53,860 bases of DNA, from positions 1-53,860 of the forward strand of contig JASNJN010000054.1 in NCBI GenBank assembly GCA_030180075.1. The letters are read 5' to 3'. The DNA comes from Mikrocytos mackini. Its lineage: Eukaryota > Endomyxa > Ascetosporea > Mikrocytida > Mikrocytiidae. Positions 646 through 40,054 of this stretch are shown here, one piece after another (the stretch's first letter is position 1; each line of letters opens with the position of its first letter). The notes under the pieces were generated by a model. It ran no database searches. It had not been told where the DNA came from and saw only the letters and a list, made by a program, of their open reading frames with translations. Made by a program: the position numbers and the translations under genes.

Positions 646-3348
646 TTACGCTACATCCTGCACAACCTCTCTTGTAAAAGTTGTTTCATCTATACTTTCT
701 GATAAGTTCCTTTCTTCAATCTTTTCCGCGGGTTTCATATTCTTTATGTTAACCCAGTATTTCTTTATTCCATCTCTTATTTCTAAGGCATTGTTTCCCG
801 CCTTAACATTTACCACTTCTAGTGGACCTCTCCAATAGTCGCCGGCCTTAGCTCGCACTGAATTCCTTGCATAAACTAAGTCGCCTATCTTTATAATTCT
901 ATTTGTACGGCGCACATTCTTCTTCTTCCTTGATTCTTCAGCGGCTTTTACTATTCTTTGTTTTATCTCTTCGTTATCTTTCTTTACTATTTTACTAAGT
1001 GGATCTATCTTACTTTTGCCGAAGAATACGATTGCAGGTGAACATCCTATCGTTCTGTGGTGTCCTTCATTCAAATTGTTTTCTACTGCTTTTATAATCT
1101 CCGACAATTCTTCTTCCCTTTTGATCCTAACTATACTTTCTATTGTTGTATTAATTCTTTCACTTATCCCGTTAGCTGCAGGATTATACGGACATGTGAA
1201 GGACTTCTTTATTCCCATTTCTGTGCACATGTTTAAGTATTCTTTGGAAGTGTATTGTCGACCATTGTCGCTTATTATCTGTCGTGGAACTCCATAGCAT
1301 TTGATCCAATGTCTTTTAGTGAGTTCTGTTACTTCTCTTCCCGTAAGTGAGGTTAGCTCGAGTATGCGGGAAAATCTAGAGAATGTGTCTGTTATGGTAA
1401 GAAAGAACTTCTTTGTCAAGCATCCGCTTTCCTCTTTCGTCCATGGACCGTAAATATCCGTACTTATGATTTGGTTTGGCTCTGTTGCTTTGTTTCCTAC
1501 ATAACCTTCTACCTTTGTTGTGTTTCCTCCGTAATGTTTTGAAGTATAACAATCGTGACACTTGGTGATGTAATTAGTCACTTTCTCTTTTAGTTTTGGG
1601 ATAGAATAGTATTGATTGAGTGAGTAATACTGTTTTAAAATCCCTGGATGACCTAAGAACTCATGGGTCTCCTGTATTAGTTTGTCAATGAGTGTAGTAG
1701 GAATAACAACTCTTCCTTTCTTATCAACAAGGATTTCTTTCCCGTCTTTGACTACCGTATCACATTCTTCCGTTCTATTAAGTTGTTCATTTTGTTCTTT
1801 TATAATTGTATCCAGCGTAAGTGTTTCTAATTTCAAAAGTAGGGAATTTGATTCTTTATTATCAAAATTCCGAGATAGAAAATCGGCGCCAGTATTCGTC
1901 GCTCCTTTCACATGTTCCCAATCTAAATCAAATTCTGCAAGCGCAATTTTCCATCTCTGTGCGCGTGAGTTCATGGCGGAAGCGTCGAAAGTTATGTTCC
2001 GTGAATCCGTATTGACCTTTATCTTAGAGTTGTAAATTAAAGTTTTGAAATTTAGAAGAGCTTTGTAAACTGCTAATAACTCCTTTTCCACGATGCTATA
2101 TCTTTTCTGGGCATCATTGAGCTTACATGAATATATCCGTACTATCCTATCTCCTTGGATTAGAATGGCTCCAAGGCCGTAATCAGAAGCATCTGTGTGT
2201 AAAGAAAATGGCTTCTCTAAATCCGGATTGTACAGTCTCTGTCCTTCTAAAATCTTGTCATGTATTTGACGTAACGCTTTTGAATCATCAACGTTCCAAA
2301 CGAATTTCTTGCCTTTCAGTTTGTCAGTTATTGGTGACAGTAATGACGAAAGTCCTTTGATGTAGGGTCGGTACCAATTAATGTACCCAATTACTTTCCT
2401 AAGTTTTCTTTTAGTATTCGGTTCTGTAAGTATTAGTTCTGCTTTAAATTCGTTTAAGTCTGGCCTAATAGATCCCTCTTCAATAGTTTGGCCTAAGTAT
2501 TTGACTTTATTCTTGCAGAAGCTACTTTTTGTAAAGTTTATACTAACTCCTTTCTCTTTTAATCTTTGTAATACTTTTGTTAAAACTTGTTGGTGTTCTT
2601 CCAAATCTTGGGTAAATACTAAAATATCGTCAAGATAGACGTGTACCCCGTCTATATCATGAAGCAAATCGTTCATGGTTCTTTGGAATATACGTGGGGC
2701 TTCACAAAGGCCGAAGGGCATTCTTGTGAATTCGTATTGTCCCCAAGGAAGTATGAAACTAGTCTTGTGTTGTTCTTCTTTCTTCATCCTAATCTGATGG
2801 AAGCCAGCGTTTAAGTCAAGTTGGCTGAACACTCTTGAGTCTTTTAAATCTTTAAATAAGGATTCCATTGTAGGTAATGGATAACTGCCTTTTACCGTTA
2901 GACGGTTTAAGTTGCGATAGTCGACAACTAGGCGTAAGTCTCCATTCTTTTTCTTTATCCCAAATGCAGGCGAAACGATGTTTGACCAAGACTTCTTTAT
3001 AATTCCTGTGTCAAGTAATCTTTCTACTTCTTGTTTCACAATGGGTATGTCTGCATATGGAACCGGGTAGGGCTTGCAACTAAGAGAAGCATCTCTTACT
3101 AATGGTATCTCCATTTCCGTTCCAGGTATAGTTCCCAAGTCTGGATTCAGTTTCTTGTGTTCTTCAATCAAAGTGTTAATGCTGTGTTTGAGTTGTTCAT
3201 CTTTCCCATGAATAGTAAGACTTCTTCCATCTATGTAGTCGTCGGGGTTCGTCGTCCTAGATGTAAGAATTTCTGTCTTAGTAGGAAGTTCTATCTCTCG
3301 CCCAGCAATTTGTATCACTCTTTCTTTGAAGTTAAGTGTGGCCTTTTC
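646..3348 (-). CDS. pol: Ty3/gypsy-type pol: reverse transcriptase, RNase H, integrase
   Basis: This frame encodes the polymerase part of an LTR retrotransposon, which copies element RNA into DNA and integrates it. In order from the N-terminus: the tail of the protease with a family-typical 'FKERVIQIAG' stretch; reverse transcriptase with the catalytic YLDD box ('DGVHVYLDDILVF') and 'MPFGLCEAP'; RNase H with 'LHTDASDYGLGAIL'; an H2C2 zinc finger; the integrase core with 'ISDNGRQYTS' and 'PYNPAANGISER'; and a C-terminal GPL/V-type region ('WRGPLEVVNV'). About 890 residues, an ordinary size for pol without gag. The frame opens just after a TGA at about 3349 and has no ATG near its start. It is therefore read from an upstream frame or is 5'-broken; the protease lies in another frame (see 3315-3452). 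No gag is seen. Confidence 0.93.
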   Translation of the reverse strand, partial: EKATLNFKERVIQIAGREIELPTKTEILTSRTTNPDDYIDGRSLTIHGKDEQLKHSINTLIEEHKKLNPDLGTIPGTEMEIPLVRDASLSCKPYPVPYADIPIVKQEVERLLDTGIIKKSWSNIVSPAFGIKKKNGDLRLVVDYRNLNRLTVKGSYPLPTMESLFKDLKDSRVFSQLDLNAGFHQIRMKKEEQHKTSFILPWGQYEFTRMPFGLCEAPRIFQRTMNDLLHDIDGVHVYLDDILVFTQDLEEHQQVLTKVLQRLKEKGVSINFTKSSFCKNKVKYLGQTIEEGSIRPDLNEFKAELILTEPNTKRKLRKVIGYINWYRPYIKGLSSLLSPITDKLKGKKFVWNVDDSKALRQIHDKILEGQRLYNPDLEKPFSLHTDASDYGLGAILIQGDRIVRIYSCKLNDAQKRYSIVEKELLAVYKALLNFKTLIYNSKIKVNTDSRNITFDASAMNSRAQRWKIALAEFDLDWEHVKGATNTGADFLSRNFDNKESNSLLLKLETLTLDTIIKEQNEQLNRTEECDTVVKDGKEILVDKKGRVVIPTTLIDKLIQETHEFLGHPGILKQYYSLNQYYSIPKLKEKVTNYITKCHDCYTSKHYGGNTTKVEGYVGNKATEPNQIISTDIYGPWTKEESGCLTKKFFLTITDTFSRFSRILELTSLTGREVTELTKRHWIKCYGVPRQIISDNGRQYTSKEYLNMCTEMGIKKSFTCPYNPAANGISERINTTIESIVRIKREEELSEIIKAVENNLNEGHHRTIGCSPAIVFFGKSKIDPLSKIVKKDNEEIKQRIVKAAEESRKKKNVRRTNRIIKIGDLVYARNSVRAKAGDYWRGPLEVVNVKAGNNALEIRDGIKKYWVNIKNMKPAEKIEERNLSESIDETTFTREVVQDVA

Positions 3349-3806: not shown

Positions 3807-5449
3807 GCATGGACTCTCCCGTTTGAGATCTTCCATGGGATCCTATTGGCCCTCTTGACCTGGACTCTAGCGAATCTGGTAAGATCCTCGAGTTCGGTGT
3901 CCGTGAATCGTAGACATTGGCCTACGAATCTGATCAGAGGGGCAGCATACACAGACTATAGTTCTACGAGTTCCGAGTTGTACAATTACTCGAGTTTCGA
4001 GTTTGTGATTTTGGACCGAGTCAAGTTTTCGAGCGAGTTATTATAAAAATAAAATCGTAAAATAGCAAGAAAAACAGGCTAGTAAATAAAATAATTGCCA
4101 AATATAAGTTTCCAAATTCGCCAAATCTTAAAGTTTTGCCAAAATACCATCTAAAATTACATTTTTATCGCTTTTCAAAACTAAAAAAAATTTATGCATA
4201 ATTAATTGCTACATTTTGGCAGTAAATCTACAAGTTTCTATGCAATATTTTCCCTACTTAGCTCGACCTAGAATTCGAGTCGAGTTCGAGTTGCGTTTTG
4301 GTCTCAACTCGGAGCGAGTACTCGCCTCGAGCCGAGTCGAGGGGAAACTCTAACACAGACATGAGTTTTCCCACATTGACTATGTTGATAAGTGTCAGAG
4401 GTGAGAAGACGATCTTTTTAATTCTCGCCTTCGCCTCTTTCATCACTGCCTCTTTGGTAGTCATTGTGTTGTTCCAGTGCTGCTTGAACTCAAGGTATTT
4501 GTACTCATGGGTTGCAGTCACCATAGGGAAATCACTAACGCCCTGGGTAGAGTTTTTCTCTTCCTCAGTTTTGTTCGTAACAATACCGCTCTTGGCATTG
4601 TTAATAAACAAGCCGACTAGTTTAGCCAGTTTGCGTATTTCGCTAACCTTTTGGCCTAGTCGGTGTAGTGACGAGTCAAACAGTTTGATGTCATCCATGT
4701 AACATATTTTTTCCACAGTGACTTCATCGACCAGCGTTGATATTTTCATCGCGTTGTCTTGGTTTGCTCTCAACACAGTTAGTGCCTCACAAAAGAGGGT
4801 TGGGGACATTTTGTCTCCCTGGAATATCCCTCTTTTAATGTTTATCTGCTCACTCTCGCCCTTGAAGTTCGTTATATACGTTCTCCAAAGGGGCATGAGT
4901 GCCCACAGAATGGCTACTAACCCATTGGGTTTGTTCGTTGAGGATTGGGTGGTCATTTCAAGCATTCGGATCAATGCTTTGTGACTCACCGAATCATACG
5001 CCTTACAGAAGTCAATATACGCGCTGTTTGGCGGCGCATGTGTGATTGATCTGCCGGTGTTCACAACAAATTCGTTCATCAGATGAGCGTCCAGACAGCC
5101 TCGTCTCCTGTTAAGGAGGGCGCGCTGCTCTGGATCCCAATTACCAGTGCGTATTAGGGTCTATATGATCCTACCTTCCAGAACGGAAGTGAACAGTTTG
5201 TAGCATGTGTTCAGCATGGTAATGGGCCTGAAGTTCTTTGGTGAGGATTTCTCACCTGACATTTTATAGAAAAGGATTGTCCTCCCAGTAGTGATCCATT
5301 GCTCAGGACTGGTTAATCCTAGCCAGATTTCATTGAACAATCTGACTAGTATACGGACCGTCATCGTCGATAGCGCCTTGTATAGGTGCGGGTAGACCCC
5401 GTCAGGCCTGCAGGCCTTCCCCGAGAAGGGCATGGCGGGAATAGATGGT
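3807..5449 (-). pseudogene. R2-like (endonuclease-type) non-LTR retrotransposon, truncated and interrupted
   Basis: Minus-strand reverse transcriptase of a LINE related to the copy at 33.4-36.0 kb. 5449-5161 encodes the fingers ('KACRPDGVYPHLYKAL', 'NFRPITMLNTCYKLF', 'LEGRI'). A single in-frame TAG (5161-5163) follows, then reading resumes in the same frame with 'NWDPEQRALLNRRRG', 'AYIDFCKAYDSVSHKAL', 'GIFQGDKMSPTLF' and the catalytic 'CYMDDIK'. The frame is split by a 396-bp insertion (3957-4352) and continues at 3948-3807 with 'LEDLTRFARVQVKRAN' and 'IPWKISNGRVHA', where a MITE interrupts it. The 5' end is cut near 5450, as is usual for LINE copies. Paralogous residues in the other copy support every segment. 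This copy cannot be active. Confidence 0.88.
3957..4352. mobile_element. 396-bp hAT-like MITE with 8-bp target duplication, nested in LINE
   Basis: Exact 8-bp direct repeats ACACAGAC flank the insert at 3949-3956 and 4353-4360. They lie on either side of the point where the LINE coding frame is broken ('KLMSV' / 'SVYAAPL'). The ends start TATAGTT and, inverted, TAGAGTT. Both subterminal regions are packed with CGAGT/ACTCG pentamers (about 3965-4040 and 4258-4345), while the middle is plain AT-rich DNA. An 8-bp duplication and clustered subterminal motifs are typical of hAT-superfamily elements. No coding capacity is present. Confidence 0.75.
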
Positions 5450-27914: not shown

Positions 27915-28141
27915 TTATTTATTTAATTGTCGTTTTGTGCGCTTGTTCTTAAATTTGCTCATTTTGAATTGTAATCGCTCCGCACTGTATTTATCCACAG
28001 GACTAAATCTAGCTTTTCAATAAAATACCAGGATGGGAATTCAATGTAAATTCTGATCCAATCATCTTCTTTTAATTATAATACCTTTAATGTGTATTCT
28101 CTATTTCCACTATCGTCAAATGTGAAGTGAATGAGTGCCAT
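27915..28141 (-). CDS. NOP10: H/ACA snoRNP protein NOP10, with two 16-nt introns
   Basis: Spliced product is 64 residues from three exons: 28085-28141, 28029-28068 and 27915-28012 (57+40+98 nt, exactly 65 codons with stop). It aligns with NOP10 throughout: 'FTFDDSGNREYTLKK' corresponds to yeast 'YTLGPDGKRIYTLKK', and 'NSHPARFSPVDKYSAER' to 'SAHPARFSPDDKYSRQR'. A Lys/Arg-rich tail follows. NOP10 is a core protein of H/ACA snoRNPs, which pseudouridylate rRNA, and binds Cbf5 and Nhp2. No single frame encodes more than a third of it. Both interruptions are GT...AG, 16 nt, and their removal restores the conserved blocks to the exact residue (KK and HP-A-RF). The ATG at 28141 follows a TTAAATTCTC box. 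The gene lies 45 bp upstream of the PH-domain gene, same strand. Confidence 0.88.
28013..28028 (-). other. 16-nt intron 2 of NOP10
   Basis: Sequence GTATTTTATTGAAAAG on the minus strand, phase 1, splitting the Ala codon (G|CT) of the NOP10 signature HPARFSP. It is identical to intron 1 at 13 of 16 positions. Unspliced, the frame runs into TAG within a few codons. Confidence 0.87.
28069..28084 (-). other. 16-nt intron 1 of NOP10
   Basis: Sequence GTATTATAATTAAAAG on the minus strand, phase 0, between the codons of the conserved KK in 'YTLKK'. Unspliced, reading meets a TAA four codons on. It shares GTATT at the 5' end and AAAG at the 3' end with the two other candidates. Confidence 0.85.
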
Positions 28142-28516: not shown

Positions 28517-28952
28517 TCATCGTTGTTGTTCTTCTTCGTTCCTTATCGTCATATACGTTGTTTTGACACTTGTTATGTTATCTTTATTCCAGTTGTATCC
28601 GAAAATTATACAAATGACTATAAAGGAAAGTAATTCCAAGACATCGCTTACAATGAGTTGCAACGGAATTGCATGGAAAAACCCGAACCTAATCATGTCA
28701 ATTCTCGCAAGCACTACTATTCCTATCTGCAACAAACCATACACCCCAACAAAGAATAGCATGTTAGCACTCACCCTTCCTGTATAGTACAATAAGTTAA
28801 CTATCCACCATAAATTTGCCCATAAAAAACGAGTTGACATCCACAGGGTGTTAATCTTTAAAAGTAAATACAACTTGTAGCAACCAAATCAAACCTAGTA
28901 GGTATGTTAAGTTCAGGTTTATCTTGTCCGCTGTACTGAGATATTTCGCCAT
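28517..28952 (-). CDS. Small multi-pass membrane protein with one 16-nt intron
   Basis: Spliced product is 139 residues from exons 28872-28952 (27 codons) and 28517-28855. It has about four hydrophobic helices: 'LTYLLGLIWLLQV|INTLW' (completed by the splice), 'FLWANLWWIVNLLYY', 'MLFFVGVYGLLQIGIVVL' and 'VLELLSFIVICIIFGY', with a charged C-terminal tail ('NEEEQQR'). The first 40 residues ('ADKINLNLTYLLG...VINTLW') faintly recall PEN-2 of gamma-secretase ('EEKLNLCRKYYLGG...LVNIFW'), but the rest is longer than PEN-2 and lacks its GG and LP residues, so I do not assign it. The ATG at 28952 follows an AAATTTCAATTTT box. Without splicing the ATG frame ends after 33 codons. Confidence 0.68.
28856..28871 (-). 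other. 16-nt intron of the small membrane protein
   Basis: Sequence GTATTTACTTTTAAAG on the minus strand, phase 0 after codon 27. It has the same length and the same terminal bases (GTATT...AAAG) as the NOP10 introns. Removal joins the ATG-led exon to the long downstream frame and completes the first hydrophobic helix. Confidence 0.75.
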
Positions 28953-33389: not shown

Positions 33390-35984
33390 GAAAACAGAGC
33401 CTGATGGAAAATCAGAAACAAGCAACTCAACAATGACGTAGAACGTTTCGGCAAATTTCCACCGGCAAAGGCTCAGTCACTTCAATATGTAAAGATTCCC
33501 GAAAACCAGACACACCTCACCTTTTGGAAAGGTCTTTGGCAGAGGGAATCGGACTTTGACTCTGAAGCAATGAGAAATGCACTTGAAGATAGCGGGGTTA
33601 ACAAACTAGAAGGAACAGTTCACAATAAATATCTTAAAGGAAAGGAAATCGCATCAGCAATCAGGAGACTAAGCCCCTGGAAAGCCCCGGGACCAGACGG
33701 GGTTCATGGGTACTTAGTCAAGAAATTGCAAGGCGCCCTGATCCCAATCCTTAAAAGACTATACAATGAGCTATGGAATGGGAAAATGAAACCACCAATG
33801 TGGTTTACTGCGGGCAGAACAATTCTTTTTCACAAGAATAAGGATTCAGTAGAGAATCCGGTAAACTACCGCCCCATTACCATGCTCAATACCCTTTATA
33901 AGATCTTCACCTCCGTGATAGAAGGACGCATTATAGGGGCCATGTACGAGGCTCACAATTGGGACATGGACCAATGTGCAAACACTTCACAAAGGAGGGG
34001 TGTCTCGACGCTCAAGTATGTAGCGAGAACATCGTAACGACTTTTCAAAGGGTATTCAGAAAGTCCTTAAACATAGCATACATAGACTTTCAGAAAGCCT
34101 ATGACTCTGTGAGCCACCAAGCTCCAGAGGTTATGTCAAGGTAAATCTTTGTGACCGGAACTAGAAAAACTCAAAGGCTATTTAATACAGTGCGGACTCT
34201 CATGCGACAGTGGCATACATACGTGGTTAACATTGGTGATTCCCCCAAACGAATTGATATCGAGAAAGGAATATTCCAAAGGGATAAGATGTCCCCGACG
34301 TTATTCTGTTTAGCACTTTCACTACTCAAACCCAAGGTCAATGGAGGTCCAGAACCATCCAACAACCTAAGGTGGAGTGCGAAAATATGCTATATGGACG
34401 ATATCAAAGTATTTGGAGCTTCAATCAGTTCGCTGGAAAAGGAGGTCAGTAAGATCGCCAGACTAGGAGAACTACTAGGATTGAAAATAAACAAACAGAA
34501 GAGCGCAGTTTTGACAGACAGACCGAGGGAGCGGCTTGCATTCACACAAGTGTTAAAGAGATTTCCACTAATGACAAGCGAGTCTAAAACCCAATACAAG
34601 TACCCGGGTTTCAAACAGGTCTGGGTCAACACAAACACAACGAAAGATGATTTACAAAGAGAAGCATACAGAAGAGTTAGGAGGATATGTAACTCGGGGT
34701 TAACCATCATCAACATAGGCAAGCAACTAAGGGTTAGTGTAGGCCCACTCATTAGTTACATAGCCCAAGCAATGATATGGTCCAACGCCGAGTTAGACAA
34801 ACTCAACCGGTTCGTCAGGAGGTGCCTCAAGATAAATGGGGTCCTTCCCTGGCGGATCTCAAATGGTCGATTGTATACCAATCCGAACAAAGGAGGGTTT
34901 GGGATTCCTAACTTCTTCGAAATTAACTACATTGCGTTAGTCGGTGCGGATAAGTACATGAAAGATTTAGAAGAAGGGTTGGATGAGACAAAATGGGACA
35001 TCGTAGATGGAGCCAGAACGCCTGTGAACTTAGCCCACGGTCAAGCTACAGCAGTGCAAGCAGCTCTCATTCTAGCAGGTGAACCCTACAGAACAATTAG
35101 GACAAAGCTGCAGTACAGGATACAAGAAATAGAATTCCCAGGAAAAGAAAATTGGTCTTCAGAAACGGATAGAGAAGAGAAAGGACTGATCAAAATGGCT
35201 TTCCAAAACTCCTACCTGAAAAATGGAACTCTGTCAAATTGAACTCAGGCTTTAATCATAGTCGGAAGGAAGCTGCAGGTTGTAGCTCCTATAGTCATAT
35301 ATGGCTGAAAAAACCCGGCCTCTCCAGAAGGGATGTGAAGAAGGTCCTACTCCTGCAAGACGGAATAGGATCCCACAAATCCTGGCTGAAGACCACTAAC
35401 AGGGAAGCAGACGACAGATGCAGAAGATGTGGCTGAGCTCCAGAAACTGTGGGACATACACTGGGAGGCTGCAACTCTATCCCCTTTACCCTCCTGAAAG
35501 AGTGACGCGATGGGGGTAGTTTTACAAATAGCCAACGAAATAATCACACAGGAACGCCTAGGTTCCAAGATAATACTTGCTGATTCAGGGAAAAGAGATG
35601 CCTGTGAGGACAGCGGATTCAAAATGCTTCTAAATCAGAGGGTCGTAACGATCAGAAACCAGGAAAGATGTCGCAGCTACCGGATATCGTTTGCATAGAC
35701 GACAAGAAAAAGAGGGTTACTGTTCTCGAGATAGGAGTATCGGCTCAAGATCTCATCGCGTACAAGGAACTGGAAAAGGAAGAGAAATATAAAGAGCTTG
35801 GTAAAAAATTAGGACGACAATACCAGAGCTATAATGTCAAAACGATGGGAGTTGTCATAGGACAGCTTGGAGTGATATCGAAAGAATCGATACCGAAGCT
35901 CCACAAATTCAGGAGACGGATCGTGGGAAGAAGGATATGCACACCCCATATAGGAGAGGACTGCTCGTATCCAAGATGTTGAAC
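33390..35984 (+). pseudogene. R2-like LINE with C-terminal zinc knuckle and restriction-like endonuclease, multiply broken
   Basis: More complete paralogue of the LINE at 3.8-5.4 kb. It runs from 'AMRNALEDSG' through reverse transcriptase ('PWKAPGPDGVHGYLV', 'YRPITMLNTLYKIF', 'IAYIDFQKAYDSVSH', 'GIFQRDKMSPTLF', 'CYMDDIKVF'), thumb ('LNRFVRRCLKINGVLPWRIS'), a C-terminal Cys knuckle ('CRRCG' stop 'APETVGHTLGGC') and an endonuclease-like 'LPDIVCIDDKKKRVTVLEI' (PD...D/E-x-x). RT then knuckle then nuclease is the order of R2/R4/CRE-group site-specific LINEs. Breaks: a frameshift near 34000, TAA at 34142-34144, frame loss near 35240, TGA at 35434-35436, and another shift before 35668. The 5' end is truncated right beside the MITE. 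Confidence 0.88.
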
Positions 35985-36844: not shown

Positions 36845-38536
36845 TTATTTCTTGTTATATCTGTGAATTTCAAAAAAACATTCAACACATAAGAAACATT
36901 CATCTTCACAACCAGGACAGTGATAATTTGTACGCTTAGCTTTCTTTCTTGCAACACTGGTACCTTCCTCATCTTTAATTTTCTTATAACATTTTTGGCA
37001 TCTTATGTTTTTCCGTGTTCCATGGAGCTTCAGATAATGGTTATTTTGAAGAGAATCGTCTTTGTCTAATATCTGTTTTATTATGTTTTCCCTGAAGTCA
37101 ATCATAGATAGCCTACCTCCCTGTTCTTTAAATTTAACAAAAGCATTGTTCATAGCTAGGTTTAAAAGCAATTCAAAAGCTAACTTTCTGTACCATTTCT
37201 TAGAGCGCCTTAAAACATCCCCGTAATGCGAATTCTGGTCGTTCAAATCCACACCTGGCTTTCCTTCATTATAAAGCATCATTATTGGATGTTTATTTTG
37301 ATTTTCTTCGGTGTCCGGTGTGTATGGTCTTGTATTCTAAAATAATACCTCTCTTTTATCATTTACTCGTAATAATTCAACTCCCAGTGGGTGAAACATA
37401 CTAATGTTTTCATTCTTTTTTAATTTCTTTTCAAATATAATCTTGGGGATACATTTCCTATTCTTTATCAATGTACTCATAAGATATATCTTATGCTGTA
37501 GTAGATACTCTGCTAGCGCCATCGAGGTATAGTAGTTATCGGTCACTAAAGTCCTTTCTTCATATAAGTAATGTTGTAGTAGATCCTTTACAATGTGGAA
37601 AGGCGTTGCTGTATGTTCGTTGACAATCGTTCCTTTGCCAGTATACACAATATACTTGTATATATAACTTGAATTATCGCATAATTTAAACAATTTAAAT
37701 CCATATTTATGAGCTTTATTTTTAATATATTGTTTAAATAATATGCGTCCTTGAAACGGAACCATTGATTCATCAACACAAAACATGGATGCCGGCGATT
37801 TCTGTCTTTCAAAATTTTCATTTAACTTTTGTATAAGTGAGTCTAGTTTGTAGAGCCTGGAGCCATTCGGTGTCAAAGTAGAGAAGTGTATATTGCTCAG
37901 GATGCTCAAGAATCTCTCTCCTTTCATGGAATTCCTGATAAAGCCACAGTTGAACAAAGTGTTATTGGACCAATAATGTTCATATCGTGGGAGTCTTACA
38001 ATTACCATATAAAGAACAACAGCAAAGAAAACCCATATTTCATCTCCATTCACATCTCTCCATTTACTAATTCTTCCATTAGTTGAAACCGAAGAGTCTT
38101 TCTTCTGGTTGGCATAAGTATTAGTACTTTGAACGATATCATCAATGATATTGGAGCTAATAAACTGTTTCAGATAGTAGAGCTCATCTACATTATCGGG
38201 ATTACTTTGAGGTGCTGCAAATAAGTGTTCATTGCTTCCACCAAAACTCTGAAAGTCAACCCTCTCAAAACTCCACGGGGATTCAATGGTACTAGAAGAG
38301 TTGCGGGAACGAATTGCCTTTTTCTTCTTGATCGGGGAGTATTCTGTGTTGTTAAGTGCTAAATCAGCGATATTAAGAGATGTTGTCATTGGATTTTGCT
38401 GAGATATGTTGAAAGTTGTTAAATAAGTATTATTGTCTTTTGAGTTTGTTGTATGGTCATATTCTTCTTTTGAAGATGGTAAATACTCTGAGTCACTCGT
38501 ACTGATTTCTTCTAAATCGAGTTTAAATTTCGTCAT
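36845..38536 (-). pseudogene. piggyBac transposase, single in-frame stop
   Basis: One long minus-strand frame from ATG 38536 to TAA 36845 interrupted only by TAG at 37337-37339. The piggyBac (DDE_Tnp_1_7) landmarks are all present: acidic N-terminus; 'FCVDESMVPFQGR' (first Asp); 'LVTDNYYTSMALAEYL' (second Asp); 'VNDKREVLF' stop; 'KPGVDLNDQNSHY' (third Asp, pattern GVDxxDQ) with 'RRSKKWYRKLAFELL'; and a C-terminal Cys-rich finger ('CQKCYKKI', 'CPGCEDECFLCVECF'). The enzyme excises precisely at TTAA sites. About 560 residues with the stop ignored, normal for the family. A TTTGAATTTC box precedes the ATG. Confidence 0.9.
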
Positions 38537-39172: not shown

Positions 39173-40054
39173 ATTAGATAGGAAATTACGAATAAGATTG
39201 AGCATTTTTGGGATATCCAGATCTGGTATTATTTTTTTAACCCAAAATTCAGAAATATATTCTAAAATATTATCTTTTTTCCCATGATTATATCCTCTTT
39301 TTCGTAAATATCTTTTCAACACTGACCAAAAGCCTTCAATATTTTGAGTGTGGGTACCATCAGGCGCGACAAAATTTTCACTATGGTTGACTACACTATG
39401 TGAAGTATTTTAAACACTTGAAACTGCTTGAACATAGGCTCGCCACCCATCAGTGTTGATATGGGTACCTTCCAAAACCCAAGATTGCAAAACTTCAGAT
39501 AATTCTTCGGCATTTCGGGTATCAACTTTCATTAAAAAAAATTTTCGGTCTTCCCGGCATATACCCCCGACAATCCATACTTCATCTCTAAGTCGTCCTC
39601 TGTTATATTTTCTTTTGTAGAGTAGACTTTCATCTATCTCCACAGTTTTCCCCGGTCCACCAATTTTTTCGCTAAAATTCATAATATGTTCAACACATAC
39701 ATTGCGCAGAATTTTATTATACTTCAAAACCGACTTATATGAAAGCCCCGTTTCCTCAGCAGCTGTTTTATTATCCAATTTTCCTTGAATATAAAAATAT
39801 AGCAAATTAAAAAACTGCGTGGTTGTCAGTTTTGTCCCGTAGATAATTGAATCCTGTCGGATATTTATTGCAGTTTTGCAAGCTACGCATCTCCAAGTTA
39901 ATTGGTCCAGTGTGTCACTTTTTTTCATTAACTTCATATTTTGGCTGCAGCTATCGCATATACGTTCGGATATATATAATCCGACATCCATCGCATATTC
40001 GACAGTCTTGTCTCTATCGGTTGTTAATAGTACGAGCTCTCGATGGCTGGTCAT
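39173..40054 (-). pseudogene. Merlin transposase (ISXO2/IS1016-type), single in-frame stop
   Basis: Minus-strand frame from ATG 40054. An N-terminal zinc ribbon ('ICDSCSQNMKL', 'WRCVACKTAINI') precedes a helix-turn-helix and the ISXO2-like DDE core: 'GKTVEIDESLLYKRKYNRG' (first Asp), 'HINTDGWRAY' (second Asp), and, after an in-frame TAA at 39410-39412, 'THTQNIEGFWSVLKRYLRK' (third acidic region). The frame ends at TAA 39173-39175, about 293 codons in all, the usual Merlin length. The stop sits between catalytic residues, so the copy is inactive unless it is suppressed. An ATTTTAAAATTCC box precedes the ATG. Confidence 0.92.

What the first reader, a model, noticed from the sequence alone, without database searches (positions are those of the whole stretch)
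28013..28084. Two exactly 16-nt introns in NOP10
Removing GTATTATAATTAAAAG (28069-28084) and GTATTTTATTGAAAAG (28013-28028) from the minus strand fuses three out-of-frame pieces into a 64-residue NOP10. Both junctions fall inside invariant blocks (YTLKK and HPARFSP) and restore them exactly. Equal length, GT...AG ends and 13/16 identity make random indels very unlikely. Microsporidian introns I know of are about 23 nt or longer; the shortest spliceosomal introns elsewhere are about 15-21 nt (some ciliates, nucleomorphs). A reduced parasite spliceosome handling 16 nt would be new to me.
Basis: partly seen in the sequence, partly recalled or inferred. Interest (0 to 1): 0.93.

Follow-up and report, generated by a model that had tools for sequence, protein, structure and literature searches.

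The report
Known 16-letter introns in oyster parasite
The two 16-letter insertions really are spliced out of this gene's message, but the organism is the oyster parasite Mikrocytos mackini, not a microsporidian, and its extremely short introns were already published in 2023.

Summary
Observation confirmed, setting wrong. Both 16-mers lie at the stated minus-strand places. Removing them gives a 64-residue NOP10 (Pfam Nop10p, E 1.9e-12). That protein equals EukProt peptide GAHX01003317.1.p1 letter for letter. GAHX01 is the Mikrocytos mackini transcriptome (PMC9998036 Table 1), so an RNA lacking both 16-mers exists. The organism is a rhizarian mikrocytid. PMC10245619 already reports 224 M. mackini introns in 179 genes, 217 of 16 bp and 7 of 17 bp. 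Real, and already known.

Added here: a likely third 16-nt intron in the window (28856-28871, minus; no RNA check); the form GTATTT-N6-AAAG; Prp8, U2 and U6 in the same assembly; and a U6 box reading AAAGAGA instead of ACAGAGA, which could pair with the introns' +4 to +6 UUU.

A side lead looks new. At 15 of 15 places found, in LINE-like elements, a 16-mer of this form directly precedes a conserved alternative-frame tail. Unspliced, the frame runs on to the reverse transcriptase (shown in two copies). Spliced, it ends after 43-45 coiled-coil-like residues (11 of 15 copies intact). No RNA support was found.

The parts
28085..28141 (-). NOP10 exon 1 (57 nt, ATG at 28141)
28069..28084 (-). NOP10 intron 1, 16 nt, GTATTATAATTAAAAG, phase 0
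   Evidence: absent from the transcript-derived peptide P0001, which equals the joined exons
28029..28068 (-). NOP10 exon 2 (40 nt)
28013..28028 (-). NOP10 intron 2, 16 nt, GTATTTTATTGAAAAG, phase 1
   Evidence: absent from the transcript-derived peptide P0001
27915..28012 (-). NOP10 exon 3 (98 nt with stop TAA)
28856..28871 (-). Likely third 16-nt intron, GTATTTACTTTTAAAG, in the next gene upstream
   Evidence: Excision joins a frame of 48 residues to one of 112, against 6 when retained. Same 16-nt form. No transcript check and no Pfam match.
28517..28952 (-). Gene holding that intron: 139-residue likely membrane protein (exons 28952-28872 and 28855-28517)
   Evidence: PEN-2-like is recall only

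Best explanation
The two 16-mers are genuine GT-AG spliceosomal introns in the NOP10 gene of the oyster parasite Mikrocytos mackini (Rhizaria, Mikrocytida), or of a species close enough to share an identical NOP10. Shown: they are in the DNA, and a transcript-derived peptide lacks both exactly. Inferred: a reduced spliceosome reads nearly the whole intron as one signal. GUAUUU (GUAUUA in NOP10 intron 1) is the 5' splice site; its +4 to +6 bases pair with a U6 box that here reads AAAGAG; a weak U2-pairing stretch lies around positions 7-10; the branch A is at position 12 or 13, just before AG. Retention shifts the frame, so splicing is needed to make NOP10.
For: Joined exons equal P0001, source EukProt, name GAHX01003317.1.p1, over 64 of 64 residues; GAHX01 is the M. 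mackini transcriptome (PMC9998036 Table 1, passages). Nop10p E 1.9e-12 with both junctions inside the match. 224 introns of 16-17 bp published for M. mackini (abstract and section 7 of PMC10245619). Motif-blind scan: 8 of 13 frame-joining 16-nt sites are GTATT...AAAG, against 1 of 149 at ten other lengths. Excision restores other conserved genes; the Pfam match spans the junction for UBC, frataxin, a GCD14-like methyltransferase and ZGRF1-N. Prp8 (E 1.7e-64), U6 (65.8 bits) and U2 (66.9 bits) are in the assembly. Window G+C is 33.0%, against 33.6% published for M. mackini and 30.06% for P. canceri.
Against: I saw a peptide record, not reads; that its name marks a transcript-called ORF is my recall of the naming style. 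The species rests on one short identical protein; rRNA could not be fetched. The assembly here is 13.6 Mb against 49.7 Mb published. U1, U4 and U5 were not found (with a tool warning that this shows no absence), although the paper reports U4. The sequence set of the length test was enriched for 16-mers; 3 of the 8 sites were not fetched for their motif. The branch point and the U6 pairing are inference.
Confidence: 0.97

Rival explanations
1. A microsporidian with a new extreme of intron size.
Against: The identical peptide is in the M. mackini transcriptome. The intron form and size fit mikrocytids.
Confidence: 0.01
2. Not introns: indels, assembly errors or a broken NOP10 copy.
For: NOP10 is very short, and the motif by itself is no rarer than chance in the window.
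Against: Exact agreement of the joined exons with a transcript-derived peptide; the same 16-nt form interrupts other conserved genes.
Confidence: 0.01
3. Introns removed by something other than the spliceosome, since 16 nt is near the lower limit for a lariat.
For: The extreme size; U1, U4 and U5 were not found here (not proof of absence).
Against: GT-AG ends with conserved GTATT start and AAAG end; Prp8, U2 and U6 are present; U6 differs at a base of the box that pairs with the 5' splice site; PMC10245619 lists 17-19 spliceosomal proteins.
Confidence: 0.01

Closest known systems
16-17 nt introns of Mikrocytos mackini and Paramikrocytos canceri (PMC10245619, 2023)
   Same: Same length, GT-AG, conserved sequence and, on the evidence here, the same species as M. 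mackini.
   Different: Nothing found. Whether NOP10 is among their 224 introns could not be checked: the word NOP10 is not in the main text and supplements were not open to me.
15-16 nt introns of the ciliate Stentor coeruleus (PMC9505925, passages)
   Same: Same size; spliceosomal; AU-rich.
   Different: Stentor introns start GUA with a branch A at position 10 or 11 and its U6 keeps ACAGAGA. Here the start is GTATTT, A13 is invariant in my set and U6 reads AAAGAGA.
18-21 bp introns of the chlorarachniophyte nucleomorph (section 7 of PMC10245619)
   Same: Very short, narrow size range, reduced genome.
   Different: Longer, and in an algal relic nucleus.
Splicing of the Arabidopsis LTR element EVD into shGAG and full-length GAG-POL (PMC8892269, passages)
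   Same: Analogue of the LINE side lead: splicing gives a short structural protein, retention the fusion with the enzymes.
   Different: EVD is an LTR element with a long intron coupled to early polyadenylation. The element here looks like a LINE with a 16-nt intron, and there is no RNA evidence.

Membership tests
Mikrocytid ultrashort introns (PMC10245619) | 16 or 17 nt long | tested here: met
   Both are 16 nt
Mikrocytid ultrashort introns (PMC10245619) | Removed from RNA | tested here: met
   Identical transcript-derived peptide; reads not seen
Mikrocytid ultrashort introns (PMC10245619) | Shared conserved sequence | tested here: met
   GTATT...AAAG shared with other genes of the assembly. 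The published logo is a figure and was not seen.
Mikrocytid ultrashort introns (PMC10245619) | Host organism is a mikrocytid | tested here: met
   NOP10 identical to an M. mackini peptide; rRNA not obtained
U2-type spliceosomal introns | GT-AG ends, and Prp8, U2 and U6 in the genome | tested here: met
U2-type spliceosomal introns | Lariat with a branch adenosine | not testable with these tools
   No reads; A12 or A13 is a guess from the set
Microsporidian introns | Host organism is a microsporidian | tested here: not met
   Peptide identity is to M. mackini
Splicing-controlled short/fusion isoforms of retroelements (EVD-like; LINE side lead) | Retained frame reaches the enzymes and spliced frame ends early | tested here: met
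   Pfam RVT_1 in the unspliced frame of C10 (E 4.8e-14) and C117 (E 2.8e-22), the two copies that show it; C240's frame runs to the contig end with no Pfam match. Spliced tails.
Splicing-controlled short/fusion isoforms of retroelements (EVD-like; LINE side lead) | Both RNA isoforms exist | tested here: inconclusive
   Two protein searches found no relative of the product at all

The most novel reading that the evidence does not exclude
In M. mackini a diverse family of LINE-like elements uses a 16-nt intron as a switch. Unspliced RNA encodes one long protein fused to the reverse transcriptase; splicing out GTATTT-N6-AAAG shifts the frame into a conserved 43-45-residue coiled-coil-like tail and a stop, giving a separate Gag/ORF1-like protein. 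Inefficient splicing of the tiny intron would set the ratio, and the unspliced RNA would be the copied template. In the same genome U6 snRNA would have changed ACAGAGA to AAAGAGA together with a shift of the introns' +5 base to U, a covariation at a box reported as 100% conserved in a set of 240 species.
Probability: 0.5. Interest if true: 0.75.

Novelty: already known. Interest (0 to 1): 0.35.

Why it matters
It corrects the identity of the window (a mikrocytid, not a microsporidian) and adds a transcript-supported gene with two introns at the lower limit of known intron size. The side observations would matter if true: a U6 box changed together with the 5' splice site bears on how a spliceosome reads an intron that is almost all signal, and a LINE making two isoforms with a 16-nt intron would be a retroelement exploiting its host's tiny-intron splicing.

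Tried and rejected
Motif counting as proof: the exact pattern gave 10 genome hits against 4 for the reversed control, but with one mismatch 173 against 156, so counts alone prove nothing. L004 and L006 match the motif, but excision gave no useful frame. Naming the third intron's gene PEN-2-like is recall; Pfam gave nothing up to E 0.1. A 17-nt frame-joining site at 34034 in the window's LINE piece lacks the GTATT start; I take it for a broken copy. U1, U4 and U5: nothing found, no proof of absence. Two protein searches for the LINE product: nothing. The window's own LINE pieces match only the enzyme part and not the intron region. A restriction-like endonuclease in the window's LINE is a motif from recall; Pfam found nothing in that ORF.

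Full report
What is there. The minus strand at 28141-27915 carries NOP10 in three pieces separated by GTATTATAATTAAAAG (28084-28069) and GTATTTTATTGAAAAG (28028-28013). Exons are 57, 40 and 98 nt with the stop; the introns are phase 0 and phase 1. Retaining intron 1 ends the reading after 2 residues, retaining intron 2 after 6. The joined 64-residue protein matches Pfam Nop10p (E 1.9e-12, residues 8-49, both junctions inside) and solved NOP10 chains (best 1y2y, E 3.6e-09).

Proof and identity. A search of 5.8 billion proteins returned three hits. The first, P0001, equals the joined exons letter for letter. Its source is EukProt and its name GAHX01003317.1.p1, 'ORF type:complete'; from recall this is the naming of an ORF called on an assembled transcript. 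PMC9998036 Table 1 names GAHX01000001.1 as the M. mackini transcriptome (passages). So an RNA without either 16-mer exists, and the window is from M. mackini or a species with an identical NOP10. Window G+C is 33.0%. The published M. mackini assembly has 33.60% and a longest contig of 76,988 bp; P. canceri has 30.06% and 40,223 bp; the window contig has 53,860 bp. The assembly searched here (G000) has 13.6 Mb in 733 contigs, against 49.7 Mb published. Its rRNA could not be fetched.

In print. PMC10245619 (abstract, sections 5-7 and passages) reports 224 introns in 179 M. mackini genes, 217 of 16 bp and 7 of 17 bp, with conserved sequences, and a spliceosome of 17-19 proteins with U2, U4 and U6; P. 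canceri is said to be alike. PMC11069148 (passages) confirms few and very short introns in both.

Independent check of the trait. Of six products joined at such 16-mers and sent to Pfam, the match spans the junction for UBC (E 1.9e-40), frataxin (1.4e-17), a methyltransferase (best 1.3e-07; GCD14 3.6e-06) and ZGRF1-N (4.8e-09). A signal peptidase subunit (SPC22, 3.1e-13) matches nearly all on the 3' side, and the sixth, the window's third intron gene, matches nothing. In a motif-blind scan of every GT...AG stretch of 13-23 nt in the held sequence (286 kb), 13 of 1248 16-nt sites joined frames strongly, and 8 of the 13 were GTATT...AAAG. At the ten other lengths 149 sites joined frames and 1 was of that type. 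The sequence is enriched for 16-mers by design; 3 of the 8 (L017, L026, window 28856-28871) were not fetched for their motif. With the motif fixed and fetched-type sites left out, 5 of 23 16-nt sites joined frames; at 12-30 nt otherwise 6 did, of which 4 are longer readings of 16-nt introns and 2 are one repeat in inverted copies.

A third window intron. GTATTTACTTTTAAAG at 28856-28871 (minus) joins two frames into a 139-residue protein, 28952-28517. There is no Pfam match and no transcript check was made.

Likely mechanism. Prp8's U6-binding domain (E 1.7e-64, open frame 2015 aa), one U6 match (65.8 bits; 48 candidates scored) and one U2 match (66.9 bits; 46 scored) are in the assembly. U2 keeps GUAGUA. 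U6 reads AUAAAGAGA where Rfam has AUACAGAGA. The ACAGA box pairs with the 5' splice site, in yeast its central A with +4 U (PMC10581693, passages); that the C faces +5 is recall. +5 is T in 15 of 15 introns tabulated, but T at +5 was part of the search motif, and I left five of the 18 16-nt rows out of that table (L008, L027, L070 and two of L068). In one search, which did not ask for +5, 8 of 13 begin GTATT; of the other five two also have T at +5 with another start, and I take all five for background. NOP10 intron 1 has A at +6. PMC10581693 states that the ACAGA box was 100% conserved in its 240 species. A change of U6 C to A together with +5 G to U is a plausible compensatory pair: inference from one assembly. 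'ACAGA' is not in the main text of PMC10245619. The branch point is unresolved: A13 is invariant in the table (again part of the motif), A12 is present in 6 of 15.

Side lead. Five of ten exact motif hits lie in LINE-like elements (L003, L005, L008, L009, L010). A search with the 45-residue alternative-frame tail found 15 places. At all 15 the 16 bases just before it fit GTATTT-N6-AAAG, in six sequence variants. The more distant C117 family, not found by that search, has the same arrangement with a 45-residue tail. Unspliced, the C10 copy is one 1279-aa frame with a Pfam reverse transcriptase (RVT_1, E 4.8e-14) and C117 one of 1239 aa (E 2.8e-22). The other unspliced frames read end earlier, or at the contig or stretch end; C240's (1017 aa) has no Pfam match. 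Spliced, 11 of 15 copies have an intact tail of 43-45 residues; C240 stops after 41, and C650, C396 and C232 have earlier stops.

Tests of the side lead. In a 123-nt stretch of the overlap the unspliced frame has no stop in 15 of 15 copies, the tail frame none in 12 of 15, the third frame 2-9 in each. Inside the 16-mer one copy (C460) has a stop when unspliced, and C99 and C131 have a stop in the upstream exon as read. Among five family representatives, pairwise differences by codon position of the tail frame are 101, 90 and 214. Variable columns are 23, 19 and 35 of 42: p 0.067 for equality of the three, Fisher p 4e-4 for third against first and second (chosen after seeing the counts). Amino-acid differences in the overlap are 180 in the tail frame, 240 in the third and 248 in the unspliced frame. 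So the tail frame is constrained as protein, and the unspliced frame is kept open but not conserved. Given the tail protein, random synonymous recoding leaves the unspliced frame open with probability 0.046-0.103 per family; the families are related. Against: no relative of either isoform in two protein searches, and +1 frameshifting is not excluded. No copy without the 16-mer was among the 15, which fits the unspliced RNA being copied, but also no splicing. Searches (listings seen) show no title or abstract reporting such a LINE; (passages) describes EVD, an LTR analogue.

Verdict. The given finding ranks low; the U6 change and the LINE switch deserve a look.

Noticed in passing
G000 C10, C668, C237, C686, C673, C460, C650, C240, C99, C131, C561, C254, C487, C396, C232 and C117 (L003, L034-L036, L038-L041, L074-L082): LINE-like elements with a 16-mer of intron form between an upstream frame that runs on to the reverse transcriptase and a conserved alternative-frame tail; possible isoform switch by a 16-nt intron. 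No RNA support.
   Followed up: partly
G000 C124:5457-5555 (L032 1501-1599): U6 snRNA with AAAGAGA in place of ACAGAGA, which could pair with the introns' +4 to +6 UUU.
   Followed up: partly
window 28856-28871, minus: Likely third 16-nt intron, GTATTTACTTTTAAAG, in the gene 28952-28517 next to NOP10.
   Followed up: partly
G000 C94 (L037 5036 + and 7297 -): Two inverted copies of a repeat carry GTATTTACAAAACAAAG, a 17-mer whose removal joins frames; possibly a 17-nt intron in a repeat gene.
   Followed up: no
window 33570-35982 (+), 4258-5433 (-), 646-3114 (-), 37337-38536 (-), 39410-40054 (-): The window is rich in mobile elements: two broken LINE-like pieces and, from recall on reading the ORFs, a Ty3-type polyprotein and transposase-like ORFs.
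   Followed up: no
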